Assembly: GCA_029549715.1 (NCBI GenBank)
Contig: JAKPIQ010000136.1
Coordinates: forward strand, 1 to 40,724
Source of the DNA: Candidatus Atribacteria bacterium
GTDB taxonomy: Bacteria > Atribacterota > Atribacteria > Atribacterales > Caldatribacteriaceae
Reading direction: 5' to 3'
Length of the DNA: 40,724 bases
The position numbers and the translations under genes were made by a program. The notes beneath the pieces are model-generated. The model did not search any database. It was given only the letters and a program-made list of their open reading frames with translations, and was not told the origin of the DNA. Each line of letters opens with the position of its first letter. Position 1 is the first letter of the stretch. Below are positions 18,071-32,814 of the stretch, piece by piece.

Positions 18071-19559
18071 TTTCCTTCTCTTTCAATAGTTTCCAGGCTA
18101 CGTAATGATCGTTATGAGGAACTATCTTCCCTTTGTACACCTGAAACCTCTCTGGACCTTTCCCCGCCAAAAAAACCGTATCTTCCTTTTGAGCTAACTC
18201 CAAAGCCCGCCGGATGGCATCTGCTCGGTCTAAGATCACTTCAAAAAACAATTTCTTGTTTGATGCCACCTTTTTTACCCCCTCCAGAGCATCCAGGGCG
18301 GTTTGCTCCGGTGCCTCTCCTCGAGGGTTGTCAGTAGTAACAATACATACGTCACTAAAGCGAGCTACCGTTTCTCCAATGAAGGGCCTTTTCCCTCTAT
18401 CTCTTTCCCCTCCACAACCAAATACGGTAATTACTTTTCCGGGAGTCAGTTCCCGAATAATAGAGAGGCTTTTTTCTAATCCATGCCAGTTATGAGCAAA
18501 ATCTACTATCACGGTAAAATCTTGACCTGCTTCCACAAACTCCCACCGACCGGGAACATGACGAATCCGAAACAGAGACTCCTGAATGCTACTTGTATCC
18601 AAACCATAAAAAAGAGCCAAAGAAATGGCAGCAAGAGCATTATACACATTATGAACTCCGGGAAAGTGAATCACTATCTCCATTTTTCCCCACGGACTTC
18701 TAACTAAAAAAGAGCTGTGGCGGAGGGAATAATTAATCTCTTCCCCCCTCACCTCCGCCTCCCGGTTCAAGCCATAAGTGAGAAAAGGAACTCCTATACT
18801 TTTTATCATCCGCAGACAACCTTCGTCATCTCCGTTTACCGCTACTACTCGAGGATGATTCTTAACCAGATTTTCCTCTACCATTTGTAGAAGCTTCTTT
18901 TTACTTGCAAAATAATGTTCGAAACTACGGTGAAACTCCATATGTTCAGAAATTAAGTTGGTAACCAAAGCAGAATCAAATTTTACCCCCTCTACTCTCC
19001 CCAGCGCCAGAGCATGGGAAGAGACCTCTACCACTGCATCTTTTATACTCATTTTTCGCATCTGATAAAGATGGCGGCAAAAAGAAAGGGATTCTTCGGT
19101 AGTATTCACCGCTTCTTCTTCCCAAGGGCCTATAATGTTCCGTGCGGTGGTGAGAAGACCACAGGGAAAGCCACTCCCCTCCCAAATGGAGCGGAGGAAA
19201 AAACAAGTGGTAGTTTTTCCATTGGTACCTGTTACTCCCATAATCCTCAGAGCAGAAGAAGGGTCATCATAGAAAAAGGAAGAGGCCAAAGCCAGCGCTC
19301 TTCTCCCTTCAGAAACTAAAACCCAGGACCCCTTAGAAGGGGCAAATTCTTTTTTTTCTAAAACTACTAAAATCGCTCCTCTTTCTACAGCTTCCTGGAT
19401 ATAAAAGTGACCATCAGTATTAGATCCGGGAAGGGCAAAAAAAACATAACCAGGCTGCACTCGACGAGAATCAAAGGTCAAACCTCTGACCTCTTCCTGG
19501 AAATTTTCAATTCTTCCCTCTTCAAAAGAAAATGAAGACAAAAATTGATCTATAGTCAA
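18027..19559 (-). CDS. murE: UDP-MurNAc-tripeptide synthetase MurE, probably meso-diaminopimelate adding
   Basis: Adds the third stem-peptide residue. It has TFDSRRVQPGYVFFALPG at the N-terminus, the P-loop GVTGTNGKTTT (109-117), SSHALALGRV, the lysine of FASKKKLL expected to be carbamylated, and GVHNVYNALAAI. The specificity motif at 410-413 is DNPR, the form linked to meso-diaminopimelate in characterised MurE enzymes, but it is followed by GEAP rather than the usual SEDP. VDFAHNWHGLEK at 352-363 differs from the common VDYAHTPD. 510 aa. It starts with TTG 19559 overlapping the ftsI stop, with GGAGG nine bases upstream. Confidence 0.94.
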   Translation of the reverse strand: MTIDQFLSSFSFEEGRIENFQEEVRGLTFDSRRVQPGYVFFALPGSNTDGHFYIQEAVERGAILVVLEKKEFAPSKGSWVLVSEGRRALALASSFFYDDPSSALRIMGVTGTNGKTTTCFFLRSIWEGSGFPCGLLTTARNIIGPWEEEAVNTTEESLSFCRHLYQMRKMSIKDAVVEVSSHALALGRVEGVKFDSALVTNLISEHMEFHRSFEHYFASKKKLLQMVEENLVKNHPRVVAVNGDDEGCLRMIKSIGVPFLTYGLNREAEVRGEEINYSLRHSSFLVRSPWGKMEIVIHFPGVHNVYNALAAISLALFYGLDTSSIQESLFRIRHVPGRWEFVEAGQDFTVIVDFAHNWHGLEKSLSIIRELTPGKVITVFGCGGERDRGKRPFIGETVARFSDVCIVTTDNPRGEAPEQTALDALEGVKKVASNKKLFFEVILDRADAIRRALELAQKEDTVFLAGKGPERFQVYKGKIVPHNDHYVAWKLLKEKENEIFTAGNSRNYSS

Positions 19560-21247
19560 AATAGTCCTACCTCCGCTTTATTTGACATTATACCAGCATA
19601 ATTAATAATACCTTGAGCAATCTCTCTAAAAACGGGAGCAGCAGTGTCTCCACCATAGTACTCTCCCTGGGGTTCATCCAGAACTACAATAACTCCAAAG
19701 CGAGGCTCGGGGACAGGGAAAAATCCTACAAAGGAAGAATAAAACTTATGAGGGTCATAGCGACCGTGAGAGCCTACTTTTTGGCCAGTTCCTGTCTTTC
19801 CTGCTATGCGATATCCCTCTATATAAGCTTTCTTCCCCGTTCCCTCTCTTACTGCTTTTTCCATCATTTCCAGAACTAAAGACGCCGTTCTCTCCGATAC
19901 TACTTCTCCTGAAATAGAAGGAGGGAAACTTTTTACTACCTCTCCTCGAGGAGAGGTTATTTCACTCACCAGACGGGGTTGCATAACCACTCCCCCATTA
20001 GCCAAAGCAGAAAGAGCTCTTAAAAGCTGCAGGGGAGTAACCATCATCTCCTGACCAATGGGAATAGCACCTATAGAAAGCAAAGACCACTCCCGAGGAG
20101 GCCGTAAAAGACCCTGCTCTTCTCCCGGCAATCCTACCTCACATTTTTCCCCCAATCCAAAATTTTTCAAATAATAAAATAGTTTATCTTTACCTAATCT
20201 TTCAGCCAAGGTGATAATTCCCACATTACAAGAATTAATCAATAAATCTTCCAGTTTTTCTTCACCATGAGCCTTAATATCTCGCACTCGATGATTATAT
20301 ACCATAATGAAACCAGGACAAAAGAATTTATCCTGGAGAAAAGTTTTTTCTTCTTCTAAAGCTGCAGCCATCACCAACGGCTTTACTGTGGAGCCCGGTT
20401 CAAAAACCATATTGGTAGCCAAATTCTTCCAGGATTCAGGAGGAAAAGCTTGAAAGTTGCGATTATCAAAGGAAGGACGACTGGCCAGAGCCAAAATATC
20501 CCCATTCTGGGGATTGTTAACTATCACCACTCCCCCAAGAGCTTTGGTTCTTTCCATAGCTTGATCCAGAGCTTCTTCAACAAAAAACTGAATAGTGCTA
20601 TCTACAGTTAAACGAAGGTCGTTGCCGTTTTGAGGCGGTAGATACTTAGTGGTAAGGGGAATTTCCCGCCCCAGTGCGTCCTTTTCATAAAATGAATAAC
20701 CTGTTTTACCCGAAAGGTAGGAATCAAAAGCAAACTCTAAACCTTCCAGCCCTCGCCCATCTTTTCCTACAAAACCCAAGAGATTGCTAAACAGGGGAGC
20801 TTGAGGATAAAAACGAGTGGGCTTCTCTTGCCAGCTTATTCCTTTCAGTTTTTTCTCTCCTAAAATTTCTTTTAAATATAGTGGTGCCTGGTCGGCTATC
20901 TCTATCCAAGATTGTCCACTGCGGAACTTTTCCTGTAGTTCCAGCGGAGAAAGGGAAAGAAGCCGGGATAACTCCTCTACCACCTCTTCTAAATCATCGA
21001 TCTGGGGAAGATAGGCAGTGATAGAGAGCACTCCCACATCTTCAGCCAGTATTCTACCATCGCGGTCTCGAATAGAGCCTCGTTGAGGTGGAAGTTCTCC
21101 CAATACTAAGCGAGACAAAGCTTCGTCTCGGTAAAACTTACCTCGCACTATTTGAACAGAAAAAACGCGAATTATAATAATTCCCAAAAGAAATAAAGTT
21201 AAAAAGAACAGAAAATTTGCCCGCCGGGCAAATTTTCTGGAAATCAT
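19556..21247 (-). CDS. ftsI: Class B penicillin-binding protein FtsI (septal transpeptidase)
   Basis: Division-specific D,D-transpeptidase that cross-links septal peptidoglycan. One N-terminal membrane anchor (about residues 11-30) follows a basic tail. The PBP dimer domain has PPQRGSIRDRDGRILAED. The active site comprises FEPGSTVKPL (nucleophile Ser 286, Lys 289), the SxN motif in NSCNVG and AGKTGTGQK (KTG). No PASTA domains follow, so it is FtsI-like rather than SpoVD-like. 563 aa. ATG 21247 overlaps the ftsL stop. Confidence 0.96.
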   Translation of the reverse strand: MISRKFARRANFLFFLTLFLLGIIIIRVFSVQIVRGKFYRDEALSRLVLGELPPQRGSIRDRDGRILAEDVGVLSITAYLPQIDDLEEVVEELSRLLSLSPLELQEKFRSGQSWIEIADQAPLYLKEILGEKKLKGISWQEKPTRFYPQAPLFSNLLGFVGKDGRGLEGLEFAFDSYLSGKTGYSFYEKDALGREIPLTTKYLPPQNGNDLRLTVDSTIQFFVEEALDQAMERTKALGGVVIVNNPQNGDILALASRPSFDNRNFQAFPPESWKNLATNMVFEPGSTVKPLVMAAALEEEKTFLQDKFFCPGFIMVYNHRVRDIKAHGEEKLEDLLINSCNVGIITLAERLGKDKLFYYLKNFGLGEKCEVGLPGEEQGLLRPPREWSLLSIGAIPIGQEMMVTPLQLLRALSALANGGVVMQPRLVSEITSPRGEVVKSFPPSISGEVVSERTASLVLEMMEKAVREGTGKKAYIEGYRIAGKTGTGQKVGSHGRYDPHKFYSSFVGFFPVPEPRFGVIVVLDEPQGEYYGGDTAAPVFREIAQGIINYAGIMSNKAEVGLF

Positions 21248-26236: not shown

Positions 26237-26842
26237 TCATTTCCCCACAAAAGCCTCTATTCCCTGGCCTTTTAATTTGTTAGCTACCTTTTGAGCTTCA
26301 TCACTACTTTGAAAACCATATATCCTCACTCGATGTAATCCTGAAACAGGTTCAGAAACGGCTTGATATCCAAACCCCTTCAAAAGGTCCACCATCTTTT
26401 GAGCGTTGGCTGGTTGAGAAAAAGCCCCGCACTGGACAAAAAATCCTCCGGAAGGAGCTTCAGCTACCTTTGGAGGAGGAGACGATGGAGCTGCAGGTTT
26501 TGCAGGAGGTTCCACTTTTTTCTCTTCTGGAGGAGCACTTGCTGCTATCTGAGTAGAAGGAGCTACCTCTTCAGAGGGAATCTCCTCTTGCGAGGGTAAA
26601 CCTTCAACAGACTCTTCTTGATGCTCAAATTCTTCTTCCACCCAAGCATAAGTAGAAGGAGAAACTTCTTTTACTTCCACTTTCTCTTCAAAAATATTGC
26701 CAGTGAGTAGGTATTCGGTATAATAGTCCAGGTCTCCTCGAGCCATGAAAAAAGCAAAAACCACCACCAGTAACCCCCCTAAGAGGATTATAATTGTTTC
26801 TACCGGATCTTGTCTTTTTAAAAAAGCAAAAGGATTGCTCAT
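26237..26842 (-). CDS. Membrane-anchored SPOR-domain protein
   Basis: A short cytoplasmic tail, one membrane helix (about residues 15-35), a ~90-residue Pro/Glu/Ala-rich linker and a C-terminal SPOR domain (GGFFVQCGAFSQPANAQKMV to the end). SPOR domains bind denuded septal peptidoglycan, so an extracytoplasmic wall or division role is likely. 201 aa. Its ATG overlaps the valS TGA by one base. In Bacillota a SPOR gene often follows valS-folC; folC is absent here. Confidence 0.85.
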   Translation of the reverse strand: MSNPFAFLKRQDPVETIIILLGGLLVVVFAFFMARGDLDYYTEYLLTGNIFEEKVEVKEVSPSTYAWVEEEFEHQEESVEGLPSQEEIPSEEVAPSTQIAASAPPEEKKVEPPAKPAAPSSPPPKVAEAPSGGFFVQCGAFSQPANAQKMVDLLKGFGYQAVSEPVSGLHRVRIYGFQSSDEAQKVANKLKGQGIEAFVGK

Positions 26843-29475
26843 CAGATATCCTCAAGTAAAGTCTCTAATTTTTCTTCCTCTTTGACCAGCTCTGCAAAAC
26901 GTCTCTTTTCCTTTTCTACTATCTCCTCTGGAGCCCGATGCAGGAAATTCAAGTCATTAAGACGCTTTTTAAGTCTCTCCTCTTCCTTTTGAAGACGAGA
27001 GAGTTTCTTATTCAAACGCTCCACCTCCTTATTGAGGTCAATCATGCCTCCCACTAAAAGATAAATATCTGCTCCTCGTACTCTTCCCGTAGCCACCGAT
27101 TCCGGTTTTTCCAAATTACAACCCATCTCCATTATCGAACACTTAGCTAAACTTTCTACGTAAGAACGGTTACCTTCCATATATCTGTAGTAATTCTCAC
27201 CAGAAAAATTGAGTATAACTTGACATTCTTCTTTAGGAGGAATACTTAGTTCCGCTCGTAAATAGCGGATTTCTCTTATCACGTCCTGTAGAAAGGAAAT
27301 AGTCTTTTCTGCTTCCTCATCCAACCATCTTTCTTCTTTGTAAGGCCAGGAAGCAATCATAATGCTCTCTGTTTCCTTTGCAGGGAGTTTTTGCCAGATT
27401 TCCTCGGTAATGAAGGGGACCACAGGATGCAAAAGTTTTAAAATCCCTGAAAGTAAATAAATGAGGAGATTTTGAGCTTTTCTTTTTTCTCTCTCTCCTC
27501 CCTGGTAAAGGTCTACTTTACTCCATTCCACATACCAATCACAGTATTCTCCCCATACAAAATCGTAAAGAAGCTGGACATACCTGCTAAAATCTAAATT
27601 ATTTAGCGCTTCCTCTACCTCACCCAATAAGCGATGAAAACGAGAAACAATCCAGCGGTCTTTAATATCGAGAACAATATGCTCCTCACAAGCTGAAAAA
27701 TCTTCCTCATTCATTAACACGAAGCGAGAAACATTCCACAATTTATTCATAAAATTGCGGGAAGCCTCTATTCTCTCCCAAGAAAGGTTAATGTCTCTAT
27801 CTTGAACTGTAAGCCAGGCGAGAGCAAAGCGCAAAGCATCCGCTCCATACTGGTCTATTATTTCCAAAGGATCAATAGCGTTACCCAGAGATTTACTCAT
27901 TTTTTTTCCCTGAGCATCACGCACTAAGGGGGTGATATAAACTTTTCGGAAGGGGACATCTCCCACAAACTTAAGACCCATCATGATCATACGTGCCACC
28001 CAGAAGAAAATTATATCAAAAGCAGTAATCAAAACCGATGTAGGATAAAAAGTTCTCAGGTCTTCGGTATCTTCTGGCCATCCGAACACCGAAAAAGGCC
28101 ACAGAGCAGAACTGAACCAGGTATCCAGGACGTCTTCATCCTGTTTCACTGCCCCCCCACAGCGGGGGCAACTATCCGGGGTATCTCGGTGAGCAAAAAC
28201 ATAATCACAATCTTGACAATAAAAAACAGGAATCCGATGTCCCCACCACAACTGACGTGATATACACCAATCTTTGATATTATCCATCCATTCAAAGTAC
28301 ACTTTCTCCCAGCGCTCAGGAATAAACTCTATCTTCTTTTCTTTAACCACCTCTATGGCTGGCTGGGCCAGGTCCTTCACTCGAATAAACCATTGATTAG
28401 AAACTAAAGGCTCTACTACCGTGGAGCACCGATAGCAATGCCCCACTGAATGATAATAATCCTCTATTTTTTCTAAGTATCTCCCCTCTTTTAATTTTTC
28501 CACTACTCTTTCCCGGGCTTCTTCCCGAGAAAGACCAGAAAATTGAAGGGCTTCTTCACTCATAAAACCTCGCTCATCGATAACCTTGACCAGAGGTAGC
28601 CCATGTTTTCTTCCCAATTCGAAATCATAGGGGTCATGAGCAGGGGTAACCTTAAGTACTCCTGTTCCAAAATCAACGTCCACGTATTCATCGGCAATGA
28701 TGGGAAGTTCCCTTCCCACAAGCGGCAGAATAGCTACTTTTCCCACGAGGTCCTGATAGCGCTCATCCCGAGGATTTACCGCTAAAGCTACATCTCCCAG
28801 CATAGTCTCCGGCCTTGTAGTGGCCACTACTAAATAATTATCCTCATCCCGAAGATAGTACTTCACATAATAAAGGTGAGCAGAAACCTCAGCATATTCT
28901 ACTTCAATGTCAGCCAATGCTGTCTCACAACGCGGACACCAGTTTACAATGTATTCGTCTCTATAAATCAAGCCTTCTTCAAAAAGGCGGACAAAAGCCT
29001 CCCGCACTGCCCGAGATAAACCTTCATCCAGGGTGAAGCGCTCTCTCGTCCAATCACAAGAAGCTCCTATTTTTTTCAATTGTTTTACAATTCTCTCATG
29101 ATAGTGCTCTTTCCATTCCCAGACTTTTTCCAGGAACTTTTCTCTTCCCAGGTCATGGCGGCTTAATCCCTCTCGAGACAGTTGCTTCTCCACCACATTT
29201 TGAGTAGCGATGCCCGCATGGTCAGTTCCCGGCACCCAGAGAGCTCGATAACCCTGCATCCTCCGGTAACGAATCAATATATCCTGAAGAGTGAGATTTA
29301 AAGCATGACCCATATGGAGATGGCCGGTAACATTAGGGGGAGGAATTACCATAGAAAAAGGAGGAGCCTCTGAGGAAGGAGGAGTAAAATAACCCTTCTT
29401 CTCCCAGAATTCATACCACTTTTCTTCCACCGAAGAAGGGTCAAAAACCGAAGATAGAGTAGTTCGCTCACTCAT
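26842..29475 (-). CDS. valS: Valyl-tRNA synthetase
   Basis: Class I aminoacyl-tRNA synthetase charging tRNA-Val. PPPNVTGHLHMGHALN is the HIGH region, GTDHAGIATQ follows, and KMSKSLGNAIDP is the KMSKS loop. The editing domain lies between, with Cys pairs such as CPRCETALAD and CYRCSTVVEP that probably bind zinc. The C-terminal ~70 residues form the typical Lys/Glu coiled-coil arm. About 877 aa. I choose ATG 29475, with AGGGG seven bases upstream, rather than the ATG five codons earlier that overlaps the clpX stop. No T-box leader precedes it; it is read through from clpX. Confidence 0.97.
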   Translation of the reverse strand: MSERTTLSSVFDPSSVEEKWYEFWEKKGYFTPPSSEAPPFSMVIPPPNVTGHLHMGHALNLTLQDILIRYRRMQGYRALWVPGTDHAGIATQNVVEKQLSREGLSRHDLGREKFLEKVWEWKEHYHERIVKQLKKIGASCDWTRERFTLDEGLSRAVREAFVRLFEEGLIYRDEYIVNWCPRCETALADIEVEYAEVSAHLYYVKYYLRDEDNYLVVATTRPETMLGDVALAVNPRDERYQDLVGKVAILPLVGRELPIIADEYVDVDFGTGVLKVTPAHDPYDFELGRKHGLPLVKVIDERGFMSEEALQFSGLSREEARERVVEKLKEGRYLEKIEDYYHSVGHCYRCSTVVEPLVSNQWFIRVKDLAQPAIEVVKEKKIEFIPERWEKVYFEWMDNIKDWCISRQLWWGHRIPVFYCQDCDYVFAHRDTPDSCPRCGGAVKQDEDVLDTWFSSALWPFSVFGWPEDTEDLRTFYPTSVLITAFDIIFFWVARMIMMGLKFVGDVPFRKVYITPLVRDAQGKKMSKSLGNAIDPLEIIDQYGADALRFALAWLTVQDRDINLSWERIEASRNFMNKLWNVSRFVLMNEEDFSACEEHIVLDIKDRWIVSRFHRLLGEVEEALNNLDFSRYVQLLYDFVWGEYCDWYVEWSKVDLYQGGEREKRKAQNLLIYLLSGILKLLHPVVPFITEEIWQKLPAKETESIMIASWPYKEERWLDEEAEKTISFLQDVIREIRYLRAELSIPPKEECQVILNFSGENYYRYMEGNRSYVESLAKCSIMEMGCNLEKPESVATGRVRGADIYLLVGGMIDLNKEVERLNKKLSRLQKEEERLKKRLNDLNFLHRAPEEIVEKEKRRFAELVKEEEKLETLLEDI

Positions 29476-29486
29476 GTCTGTTCCCC

Positions 29487-30743
29487 TCATGCTGATTGTT
29501 CTTCTTTAGTTCCTCCCTTTTCTAACAAAGGAAGGAGAGCATTATTTTTCACTACCTCCTCATCAATCACCAACTTTTTAATATCCCGGCGAGAAGGTAA
29601 CTCAAACATCAGCTCCACCATTAACTTTTCCATAATAGCACGTAGCCCTCTGGCTCCTGTACCTTTGACCATAGCTTCTTGGGCAATGAGGCGCAATGCC
29701 TCTTCGGTAAAAACCAGCTCCACTCCCTCCATCTTTAACAAACTCTGATACTGTTTAACCAGGCTATTGCGAGGCTCAATAAGAATACGCACCAGGTCTT
29801 CTTTCCGCAAGGGCTCAAGAGCACAAACCACTGGAATACGTCCTACAAATTCAGGAATCATGCCATACTTCATCAAATCCTCTGGTTGAACTTCACTCAA
29901 AGGATTCAACAATTCCACATCAGAAGAAAGGCCCTCCCGAGCCCCAAAACCAATCTTGCGGTCTTTTAAGCGATTCTCAATTATCTTATCTAAGCCTACA
30001 AATGCACCTCCACAAATAAACAGAATGTTTTCGGTGTTAATCTGAAGGAGGTCCTGATGAGGGTGTTTTCTTCCTCCCTGAGGAGGAACACTGGCCATGG
30101 TTCCTTCCAGAATTTTTAACAAAGCTTGCTGCACTCCCTCACCTGATACATCTCGGGTAATAGAAGGACTTTCTCCTTTCCGGGCAATTTTATCTATCTC
30201 GTCTATGTACACGATTCCCTTCTCTGCTTTTTTAATATCAAAATTAGCATTCTGAATCAGGCGAAGTAGAACATTCTCTACGTCTTCTCCTACGTAGCCA
30301 GCTTCAGTTAAAGTGGTAGCATCGGCAATAGCAAAAGGAACATCTAACAGCAAAGAAAGAGTACGAGCCAAAAGAGTTTTGCCACTCCCCGTGGGACCAA
30401 TAAGTAAAATATTACTTTTTTCTATTTCTACTTCTTCCTCCGAACTGTGAGCAATTCGTTTATAATGATTGTAGACTGCCACAGCAAGTACTTTTTTAGC
30501 TCTTTCTTGTCCTATCACATATTGATCCAGAAAAGCTTTTATTTCTTTAGGAGAAGGTAGATTTTCTAGAGCAAAATCTGATTTCCGGTTTTTATCGTCT
30601 TCTCTGATGATTCCATTACACAACTCTACACACTCATCACAAATATAGACTCCCGGACCAACAATGAGTTTCTTAACTTCTGATTGACTCTTACCACAGA
30701 AGGAACAGCGTAATTTCAATTTTTCCTCCTCATACTTAGGCAT
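29487..30743 (-). CDS. clpX: ATP-dependent Clp protease ATPase subunit ClpX
   Basis: AAA+ unfoldase feeding ClpP. The N-terminal C4 zinc domain ([11 protein letters not shown] ... [10 protein letters not shown], residues 14-42) recruits substrates. Walker A is [15 protein letters not shown] and Walker [17 protein letters not shown] sits in the usual IGF-loop position for docking to ClpP, and ATG...[11 protein letters not shown] gives sensor 2. 418 aa. ATG 30743 has AGGAG upstream and follows clpP by six bases. Confidence 0.97.
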
Positions 30744-30749
30744 TATTAT

Positions 30750-31376
30750 TTACTTCTCCTTTTTATTTTTTTCTTCTGGATAAAGAACTCTATCTATTAA
30801 CCCATATTCTCGCGCTTCCTCAGGAGACATAAAGTAGTCTCTTTCTGTATCGTTTTTAATCTTTTCTACCGGCTTTCCAGTGTGATGAGCTAATATTTCA
30901 TTCAACTTTTCTCTGATTTTAATCATCTCTCGAGTATGAATCTCAATATCAGACACCTGTCCCTGTGCCCCACCCAAAGGCTGGTGAATCATTACCCGAG
31001 AATTAGGTAAGGCCATTCTTTTACCTTGAGCTCCAGCGGCTAAAATTACTGCCGCACCGCTAGCCGCCTGTCCAATACAGATAGTGGCTATATCTGGCTT
31101 TACATACTGAATAGTATCATAGATAGCCAAAGTGGAAGAGACTGTGCCACCGGGACTGTTGATGTAAAGATTAATGTCCTTTTCCTTATTGACTGCCTCT
31201 AAAAAAAGTAGCTGAGCAATAATCAAGTTAGCTACCGTATCATTTATTTCCGTTCCCAAAAAAACAATTCTATCTTGTAAAAGACGAGAGTAAATATCAT
31301 AAGCTCTCTCCCCATGGGGAGTTTGCTCCACCACCATGGGTACTAAATAATTACTCATCCGCAGGAAGTTTTTCAT
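30750..31376 (-). CDS. clpP: ATP-dependent Clp protease proteolytic subunit ClpP
   Basis: Serine protease that forms the tetradecameric chamber used with ClpX. The catalytic Ser lies in [15 protein letters not shown], the His in [13 protein letters not shown] and the Asp in [25 protein letters not shown] is the oxyanion strand. I choose ATG 31376, which overlaps the tig stop as ATGA and has GGAGG seven bases upstream; a further ATG at 31358 is possible. About 208 aa, normal with a short propeptide. Confidence 0.97.
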
Positions 31377-32680
31377 CCTATCGCCTCCTCTTCCGGGTCC
31401 TCCAGAGCTCTCCATTGATCTAAATTGATAGGCTCCTCCAGCTCCTTAACTCTAACTTTTTGAGCCAAGTCTTTAAGGGCTTTCTTTTCTTTTATATTAT
31501 ATTTTACTTCGTTTATTCTGTCATTCTCTTCCAAAATTCTTTTCACTTCTTCCTTAGTTCTACCAGTTCTTTTTGCTATTTCCTCATACTCTGCCGCTAA
31601 GTCCTCTTCCGTAACTGAAATTGCACTTTCTTCAGCATATTTTTCCAAAACAAAGAATCTCCGAAATTCCCACCGGGCTAAATCCCGTAAATTCTTTTCT
31701 AAAGTGGCAAAATCCATGTCTATTAACTCTAAATAGCGGTCTAGAGTTAGACCATCTTCTTCTAAATCCTCCCTCAGTTGGTCTATCCGCCGGCGAACAT
31801 CAATATCTAATAGAGCTTCAGGAATATAGACTTCAGATTCTCGACATAGGGCCACTACTGCTTCTTTTTCTAATCTTTCTTCCACCATTTCTTGAGCCAC
31901 AGCTTCTAACCTTTCTCTAACTTTGGCTTTTAAATCTTCTATGGAATTTAAACCCTCTTCTAAGCTGGATAGAAACTCCTGGTTTACTTCTGGCCTTTCT
32001 TTTCCCATTATCCCACTTACTGAAAACTCCACACTGGGTTTTTCTTCCCCTTCTCCCCGGGGTATTTTCCCCTTATCCCCTACTTTCATACCTAACACTT
32101 CTCGGGTAAGAGACTTATCTTTATCCAGAGAAGCCTCCGCCACTACGGCATAATCTTCATCTTCTATTTTTATCATAACCAAATCCCCTTCTCTTGCTGG
32201 TTCATCTTCTCCCTTATCTTTCCAGGTGCTATGGGAATCTATTAATTTCTCTACTTCTTTTTCTACATCTGACTCTCTGATCTCTAAGCGATATTTTCTT
32301 ACTTCTAACTCCCGGGGGTCAGCTAACTTTACTTCTGGCTCTTCTACTACTTGAAGACGAAAAACTAACGGTTCACCTTCTTCTGCCTGTATTACCTCCA
32401 GCTCCGGCTCGCCAATCACTTTAAGATTCTCCTGGGTTAACACCTCCCGAGTTACTTGAGGAATTAAATCTTGAGCCACAGTATCCATAATAAAATCCTC
32501 CCCCGCATAACTGCGCAACATAGCCCGAGGAGCTTTTCCTCTTCTAAAACCCGGTACATTCACTCTATAGCTGAGTTCTCGATAAACTTTATCCAGCGCC
32601 TCGTCTACCCGTTCTTTTTCTACCGTGATCTCCATTTCTATTACATTTCTTTCCTTTTCTTCTTTTTTAACTTCTACCAT
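31373..32680 (-). CDS. tig: Trigger factor chaperone with a reduced PPIase domain
   Basis: Ribosome-associated chaperone. The N-terminal ribosome-binding domain has the signature [13 protein letters not shown]. The middle region begins like the FKBP-type domain ([12 protein letters not shown]) and resumes at [10 protein letters not shown], but the IPGFE active-site block and adjacent strands are missing, so the domain is shorter than usual (about 68 instead of ~90 residues between EGD and the ending RPE) and probably lacks prolyl isomerase activity. The C-terminal helical arm domain is complete. 435 aa. ATG 32680 follows AAAGGTGG. It is the first gene of tig-clpP-clpX-valS. Confidence 0.93.
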
Positions 32681-32719
32681 TTATGCATATTCCACCTTTC
32701 CCGATCAAAATGATTAAAT

Positions 32720-32758
32720 TCATATAAAACAAAAAATTATACCCCATATCTTTTTCAT
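32720..32758 (-). CDS. Possible 12-aa leader peptide before tig
   Basis: ATG AAA AAG in the tig leader starts a 12-codon frame (MKKIWGIIFCFI) that ends 39 bases before tig and runs through the 3' arm and U-tract of the leader hairpin. The ribosome-binding site is weak (GTGGG inside the hairpin). It may be chance; it is listed because translation of this frame would disrupt the hairpin. Confidence 0.2.
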   Translation of the reverse strand: MKKIWGIIFCFI

Positions 32759-32768
32759 TGGGGTATAA
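32727..32768 (-). terminator. Leader hairpin plus U-tract upstream of tig (attenuator candidate)
   Basis: On the minus strand TTATACCCCA (32768-32759) pairs perfectly over 10 bp with TGGGGTATAA (32746-32737), loop 12 bases, followed at once by six T, G and four T. This is a standard intrinsic terminator shape. It begins only ~12 bases after the predicted tig start site, so it would act as a leader attenuator rather than as the end of the phosphoesterase operon, though it could do both. GGG at 32771-32769 can instead pair with the CCC of the 5' arm, a possible competing structure. Confidence 0.65.
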
Positions 32769-32786
32769 CCCACTTCGTCTGGTTTT

Positions 32787-32814
32787 ATTTTACTATAATC
32801 TCTCTGGCAGTCAA
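32787..32814 (-). promoter_or_regulatory. Sigma-70-type promoter of the tig operon
   Basis: TTGACT (32809-32814) and TAAAAT (32787-32792) on the minus strand with a 16-base spacer, ~107 bases before the tig start codon. Predicted initiation near 32780 places the hairpin at 32737-32768 at the very beginning of the message. Confidence 0.6.

What the first reader, a model, noticed from the sequence alone, without database searches (positions are those of the whole stretch)
32720..32814. Terminator-like hairpin at the very start of the tig-clpP-clpX-valS message
The only good promoter (TTGACT-16-TAAAAT) starts RNA about 12 bases before a perfect 10-bp stem followed by U6-G-U4. Nothing promoter-like follows before tig, so the operon must read through it. 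A competing GGG/CCC pairing and a 12-codon ORF crossing the hairpin could control readthrough. A leader attenuator for trigger factor and ClpXP would be unusual.
Basis: partly seen in the sequence, partly recalled or inferred. Interest (0 to 1): 0.5.

Follow-up and report, generated by a model that had tools for sequence, protein, structure and literature searches.

The report
Conserved hairpin before trigger-factor operon
In one class of poorly studied subsurface bacteria (Atribacterota), the message for the protein-folding and protein-destroying genes tig-clpP-clpX begins with a hairpin that looks like a "stop transcription" signal and keeps its sequence across genera, which suggests a previously undescribed control switch.

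Summary
On the minus strand, a strong promoter (TTGACT-16-TAAAAT) starts RNA about 13 nt before a perfect 10-bp stem followed by T6-G-T4, with tig-clpP-clpX-valS downstream and no convincing promoter between. The genome belongs to the Atribacterota.

The hairpin is conserved upstream of tig in 12 of 25 order-level genomes (5 of 10 genera, two families), essentially single copy per genome, and absent from Rfam. The stem is frozen in sequence (TATACCTCGAT/ATCGAGGTATA) while loop and leader vary; in genus g8, 22 of 22 arm bases are invariant against 37 of 101 flanking bases. Two pairs show convincing compensatory changes. Nearby terminators are not conserved across genera.

The attenuator reading is therefore plausible; in g2/g3 readthrough looks obligatory. 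The proposed details fail: the 12-codon ORF and GGG/CCC competitor are not conserved, the U-tract is lost in both congeners with data, genus g8 has a second promoter after the hairpin, and no conserved antiterminator is seen.

Best reading: a new lineage-specific leader hairpin of the tig operon acting as a partial terminator, probably tuned by an unidentified factor that reads the stem. Nothing has been shown by experiment.

The parts
32787..32814 (-). Promoter P1 of the tig operon: TTGACT-16-TAAAAT
   Evidence: Rank 5 of 406,840 placements in the window; near-identical in congeners G002 and G003; analogous TTTGACA..TATAAAAT upstream of the hairpin in g2/g3
32737..32768 (-). Leader hairpin, 10-bp perfect stem TTATACCCCA/TGGGGTATAA, 12-nt loop
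   Evidence: Sequence; conserved in 12 genomes; compensatory changes; single copy
32726..32736 (-). U-tract T6-G-T4 directly after the stem
   Evidence: Sequence; T5-T7 invariant in g2, g3, g8, g10; degraded in G002 and G003
32769..32771 (-). GGG that can extend the stem by pairing with the bases after the right arm (UUU in own and G003, CUC in G002); g1 only
   Evidence: Folds; alignment A3
32720..32758 (-).
   Evidence: No Shine-Dalgarno sequence; broken in G002 and G003
32692..32698 (-). Shine-Dalgarno sequence AAGGTGG of tig
   Evidence: Sequence; conserved in relatives
31373..32680 (-). tig (trigger factor), 435 aa
   Evidence: ORF; homologues in 50 of 61 genomes
30750..31415 (-). clpP (reading frame as listed; overlaps the end of tig)
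   Evidence: ORF; assignment from sequence features
29487..30743 (-). clpX
   Evidence: ORF; assignment from sequence features
26842..29490 (-). valS, overlapping the end of clpX by 4 bases
   Evidence: ORF; assignment from sequence features

Best explanation
It is a conserved, tig-dedicated leader hairpin of Atribacterota (class Atribacteria). RNA polymerase starts at P1 and soon makes a stem-loop shaped like an intrinsic terminator. A fraction of polymerases stop there and the rest read into tig-clpP-clpX-valS, so the hairpin sets, and probably regulates, how much of the operon is made. Because the stem is frozen in sequence and not only in pairing, an unidentified factor (most simply an RNA-binding protein) probably reads it and shifts the termination/readthrough balance. 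Shown here: hairpin, conservation, single copy, position after a predicted and conserved promoter, strand-specific U-tract in most genera. Inferred: partial termination, the regulator and its signal. In genus g1 the element is drifting: G002 and G003 keep the stem, extended by GGG pairing, but have lost the U-tract, so there it may act as a leader structure and no longer as a terminator.
For: The hairpin was found at the same site in 12 genomes reached by an unbiased tig protein search. Covariance model: one strong hit per genome in those 12, none in the other 38 phylum genomes. Pairing: 90% of cells pair against 25-46% in slid controls, with 3 pairs changed on both sides: UA to CG in the own genome, GC to AU in all three g1 genomes, and a third at a poorly aligned inner pair. 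In g8, 22 of 22 arm bases and 6 of 6 U-tract bases are invariant against 37 of 101 flanking bases, Fisher p about 8e-9. Strand asymmetry: T5-T7 follows the right arm only. Loop length varies with no fixed spacing. A d'Aubenton-type terminator score is positive for own, G004, G019 and all five g8 genomes (15 to 31), about 0 for g3. Other terminator-like hairpins nearby are not shared across genera. In g2/g3 only 30-34 nt lie between hairpin and tig.
Against: The U-tract is degraded in G002 and G003 (scores -40 and -19), the nearest relatives. No conserved antiterminator pairing or leader peptide was found. g8 carries a conserved second promoter between hairpin and tig, so readthrough is not needed there. 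Genera g4, g5, g7 and g9 lack this hairpin altogether. No RNA data were available, and the promoters are predictions.
Confidence: 0.55

Rival explanations
1. Leader stem-loop with a non-termination role: it protects the 5' end of the mRNA or is a docking site for an RNA-binding protein acting on stability or translation. The U-tract is incidental in g1.
For: In g1 the stem begins about 13 nt from the predicted 5' end; all three g1 species keep the stem and its GGG extension while two lose the U-tract.
Against: Outside g1 the T5-T7 is invariant directly after the stem. Distance to the tig start ranges from 30 to 202 nt, so direct control of translation is unlikely; in g2/g3 the stem lies about 60 nt from the predicted 5' end.
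Confidence: 0.2
2. Plain terminator kept to stop upstream transcription (ancestrally that of tRNA-Leu), with tig expressed by unregulated leakage or, in g8, from its own downstream promoter. No regulation is involved.
For: tRNA-Leu lies upstream of tig in g3, g9 and several JS1-type genomes, where hairpins stand between tRNA-Leu and tig. In g8 the conserved second promoter makes the hairpin an insulator.
Against: In g1 and g2/g3 a conserved promoter lies between the upstream gene and the hairpin, so an insulator there would block tig itself. A plain terminator would not need a frozen stem sequence; neighbouring terminators are not frozen.
Confidence: 0.17
3. DNA operator: the inverted repeat is a binding site for a dimeric transcription factor downstream of P1.
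For: Palindrome with conserved half-sites; the change in the own genome is symmetrical in both arms.
Against: Spacing between the TATACCTC half-sites varies (12, 13, 14 and 16 bp), the U-tract is on one side only, and distance to the promoter varies. Single copy per genome; the known CIRCE operator is absent from these genomes.
Confidence: 0.06

Closest known systems
greA leader / GraL of Enterobacteria (Rfam RF01769)
   Same: Promoter followed by an intrinsic terminator in the leader of a housekeeping gene that must be read through; autoregulation reported to act through the leader in cis (PMC6829880).
   Different: No relationship shown: the own leader scores 16.5 bits against a gathering score of 60, E 0.69. 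Different gene, and greA/rnk leaders were reported to have clear antiterminators (PMC2965389), which are not seen here.
Premature-terminator attenuators in general (survey PMC2965389)
   Same: Hairpin plus U-tract in the 5' leader, downstream of a promoter, upstream of an operon.
   Different: No alternative antiterminator found; stem frozen in sequence; tig, clpP and clpX are not named in the main text of that survey.
CIRCE operator of HrcA heat-shock regulons
   Same: An inverted repeat with about 9-bp arms between a promoter and protein-quality-control genes.
   Different: Other arm sequence, variable spacing, one-sided U-tract; no CIRCE at up to 2 mismatches in any of 25 order genomes.

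Membership tests
Transcription attenuator (leader intrinsic terminator with regulated readthrough) | Promoter upstream of the hairpin, operon downstream | tested here: met
   for the own genome; conserved promoter hexamers in g1 and g2/g3. Prediction only, no mapped start site
Transcription attenuator (leader intrinsic terminator with regulated readthrough) | Stable hairpin directly followed by a U-tract | tested here: inconclusive
   Met in own, g2, g3, g8, g10; U-tract degraded in congeners G002 and G003
Transcription attenuator (leader intrinsic terminator with regulated readthrough) | Alternative antiterminator structure or leader peptide | tested here: not met
   No conserved competitor or ORF; a protein-dependent attenuator would not need one
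Transcription attenuator (leader intrinsic terminator with regulated readthrough) | Termination and readthrough that respond to a signal | not testable with these tools
   Needs RNA 3'-end mapping and in vitro transcription
greA leader (RF01769) | Covariance-model score at or above the gathering threshold | tested here: not met
   16.5 bits against 60
CIRCE / HrcA operator | TTAGCACTC-N9-GAGTGCTAA | tested here: not met
   Sequence and spacing differ; pattern absent at up to 2 mismatches in 25 genomes
Dispersed palindromic repeat (REP/MITE) | Many copies per genome | tested here: not met
   Essentially one copy per genome

The most novel reading that the evidence does not exclude
The frozen stem is a specific recognition site for a dedicated RNA-binding regulator, possibly autogenous and reporting protein-folding or protease load, that controls termination ahead of the trigger factor-ClpXP operon. 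The JS1-type class would have an independent version with a different stem (CCGCAAA/TTTGCGG) at the same place, making attenuation of tig a phylum-wide strategy.
Probability: 0.2. Interest if true: 0.72.

Novelty: new member of a known kind. Interest (0 to 1): 0.5.

Why it matters
I found no report of a leader terminator or attenuator for trigger factor in the papers and RNA families searched. If real, it links protein-folding and ClpXP supply to transcription termination in a phylum with almost no known gene regulation. A stem frozen in sequence while its loop and leader drift points to an unknown factor that could be fished out biochemically.

Tried and rejected
Leader-peptide control (ORF not conserved). 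GGG/CCC antiterminator (probability about 0 in the full leader, seen only as a weak transient fold in g1). Folding the plus strand. Rfam families at gathering and relaxed thresholds. CIRCE operator. Dispersed repeat. Distant homologues by genome contigs: beyond two Atribacteria contigs the hits carried other labels (mostly Clostridia and other Bacillota) at 31% identity or less, so I did not use their leaders. Pattern scan of viral contigs: nothing. Literature on tig attenuation: nothing specific. Thermometer idea: the stem stays mostly paired up to 70 C in the model, so simple melting is unlikely.

Full report
What is there. The window's minus strand carries promoter TTGACT-16-TAAAAT (32814-32787), a predicted start near 32781, a perfect 10-bp stem TTATACCCCA/TGGGGTATAA (32768-32737) with a 12-nt loop, then T6-G-T4, a Shine-Dalgarno sequence and tig at 32680. 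clpP, clpX and valS follow closely on the same strand. The promoter ranks 5th of 406,840 placements in the window; nothing comparable lies between hairpin and tig. One of 20 shuffled windows held a comparable stem with U-tail, so the shape alone is suggestive and comparison with relatives is what decides.

Source. The genome is an unnamed 1.45-Mb assembly. G017, a single 3.1-Mb contig, is probably Atribacter laminatus RT761, the largest genome in the phylum survey PMC11227167; that identity is inferred from size.

Conservation. A tig protein search gave upstream regions from 29 genomes. In 12 of them, genera g1, g2 and g3 of family f1 and g8 and g10 of family f3, the same hairpin stands upstream of tig: ATACC(T/C)C(G/A)AT...G(A/G)GGTAT, followed in all non-g1 genomes by T5-T7. 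It is missing in g4, g5, g7 and g9 and in JS1-type genomes. A covariance model finds one strong hit in each of those 12 genomes and none in the 38 other phylum genomes (the prefilter scored 129-150 candidates per genome, so weak copies could be missed). In the order the pattern TATACCTC-N-GAGGTATA hits only the tig sites, whereas the same pattern gives 5 scattered hits in the other phylum genomes, a fair measure of background. A looser pattern gives one other hit, in G005. The tig tree needs three changes of the hairpin label; one origin with losses is not ruled out.

Structure against sequence. On alignment A2, 90% of pair cells are paired against 25-46% in slid controls, and three pairs show changes on both sides, of which two are convincing: U-A to C-G in the own genome and G-C to A-U in g1. 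Six of twelve pairs never vary. In g8 the arms are 22/22 invariant, the U-tract 6/6, the loop 3/7, and the flanks 37/101. Other terminator-like hairpins in the neighbourhoods are not shared across genera. So the stem is constrained in sequence as well as pairing. Loop length and distance to the promoter vary and the U-tract is one-sided, which favours RNA over a DNA operator.

How it probably works. In g2/g3 only 30-34 nt lie between hairpin and tig start, and the promoter upstream is conserved while the leader is not; the operon there must be read through the hairpin. A d'Aubenton-type score (formula applied from memory) is positive for the own genome, g2, g10 and g8, near zero for g3. This supports partial termination. 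Against a simple attenuator: G002 and G003 have lost the U-tract but kept the stem and extended it by GGG pairing; g8 has a conserved second promoter (26/29 invariant) between hairpin and tig; no antiterminator or leader peptide is conserved. I therefore favour a leader hairpin that terminates part of the transcripts and is read by an unidentified factor, with the termination role weakening in part of g1. The factor and its signal are inference.

Wider pattern. In JS1-type genomes a different hairpin, CCGCAAA/TTTGCGG with a T-rich tail, stands upstream of tig, often directly after tRNA-Leu; the pattern occurs about once per genome and lies roughly 40-530 nt upstream of tig in 14 genomes. g9 has yet another terminator-like hairpin after tRNA-Leu. 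A terminator-like hairpin just before tig is thus a recurrent layout in the phylum; its origin as a tRNA-Leu terminator is a reasonable inference.

Verdict. Real, conserved and apparently undescribed; the attenuator function is plausible and unproven. The literature and Rfam searches found no match, within the limits of an open-access library.

Noticed in passing
L024, L025, L030, L172-L177, L179, L185 (JS1-type genomes), about 40-100 nt upstream of tig: A different sequence-conserved, terminator-like hairpin (CCGCAAA/TTTGCGG plus T-rich tail) precedes tig, often directly after tRNA-Leu; the pattern occurs about once per genome.
   Followed up: partly
L004, L005, L020, L021, L024, L028, L030: A tRNA-Leu gene lies just upstream of tig in both classes of the phylum, probably the ancestral gene order; not seen directly upstream in g1, g2, g4 and g8.
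   Followed up: partly
L016-L019, L022 (genus g4): In place of the hairpin, g4 has a short leader with an invariant stretch CATATAATTCTTCCGATGCT just before the Shine-Dalgarno sequence.
   Followed up: no
L008, L009, L011, L012, L013, about 100-170 nt upstream of tig: Genus g8 has a second, strongly conserved promoter-like site (TTCACA-17-TAAAAT) and a conserved leader after it.
   Followed up: partly
window 21209-21239, minus strand: A 14-bp hairpin followed by a T-rich stretch at the start of a penicillin-binding-protein-like gene (19556-21247); a near-identical one with T8 is in congener G002.
   Followed up: no
hairpin left arm in g2, g3, g8 and g10: ACCUCGAUG equals, from memory, a stretch of 23S rRNA near the peptidyl transferase centre; not tested, likely chance, and g1 differs.
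   Followed up: no
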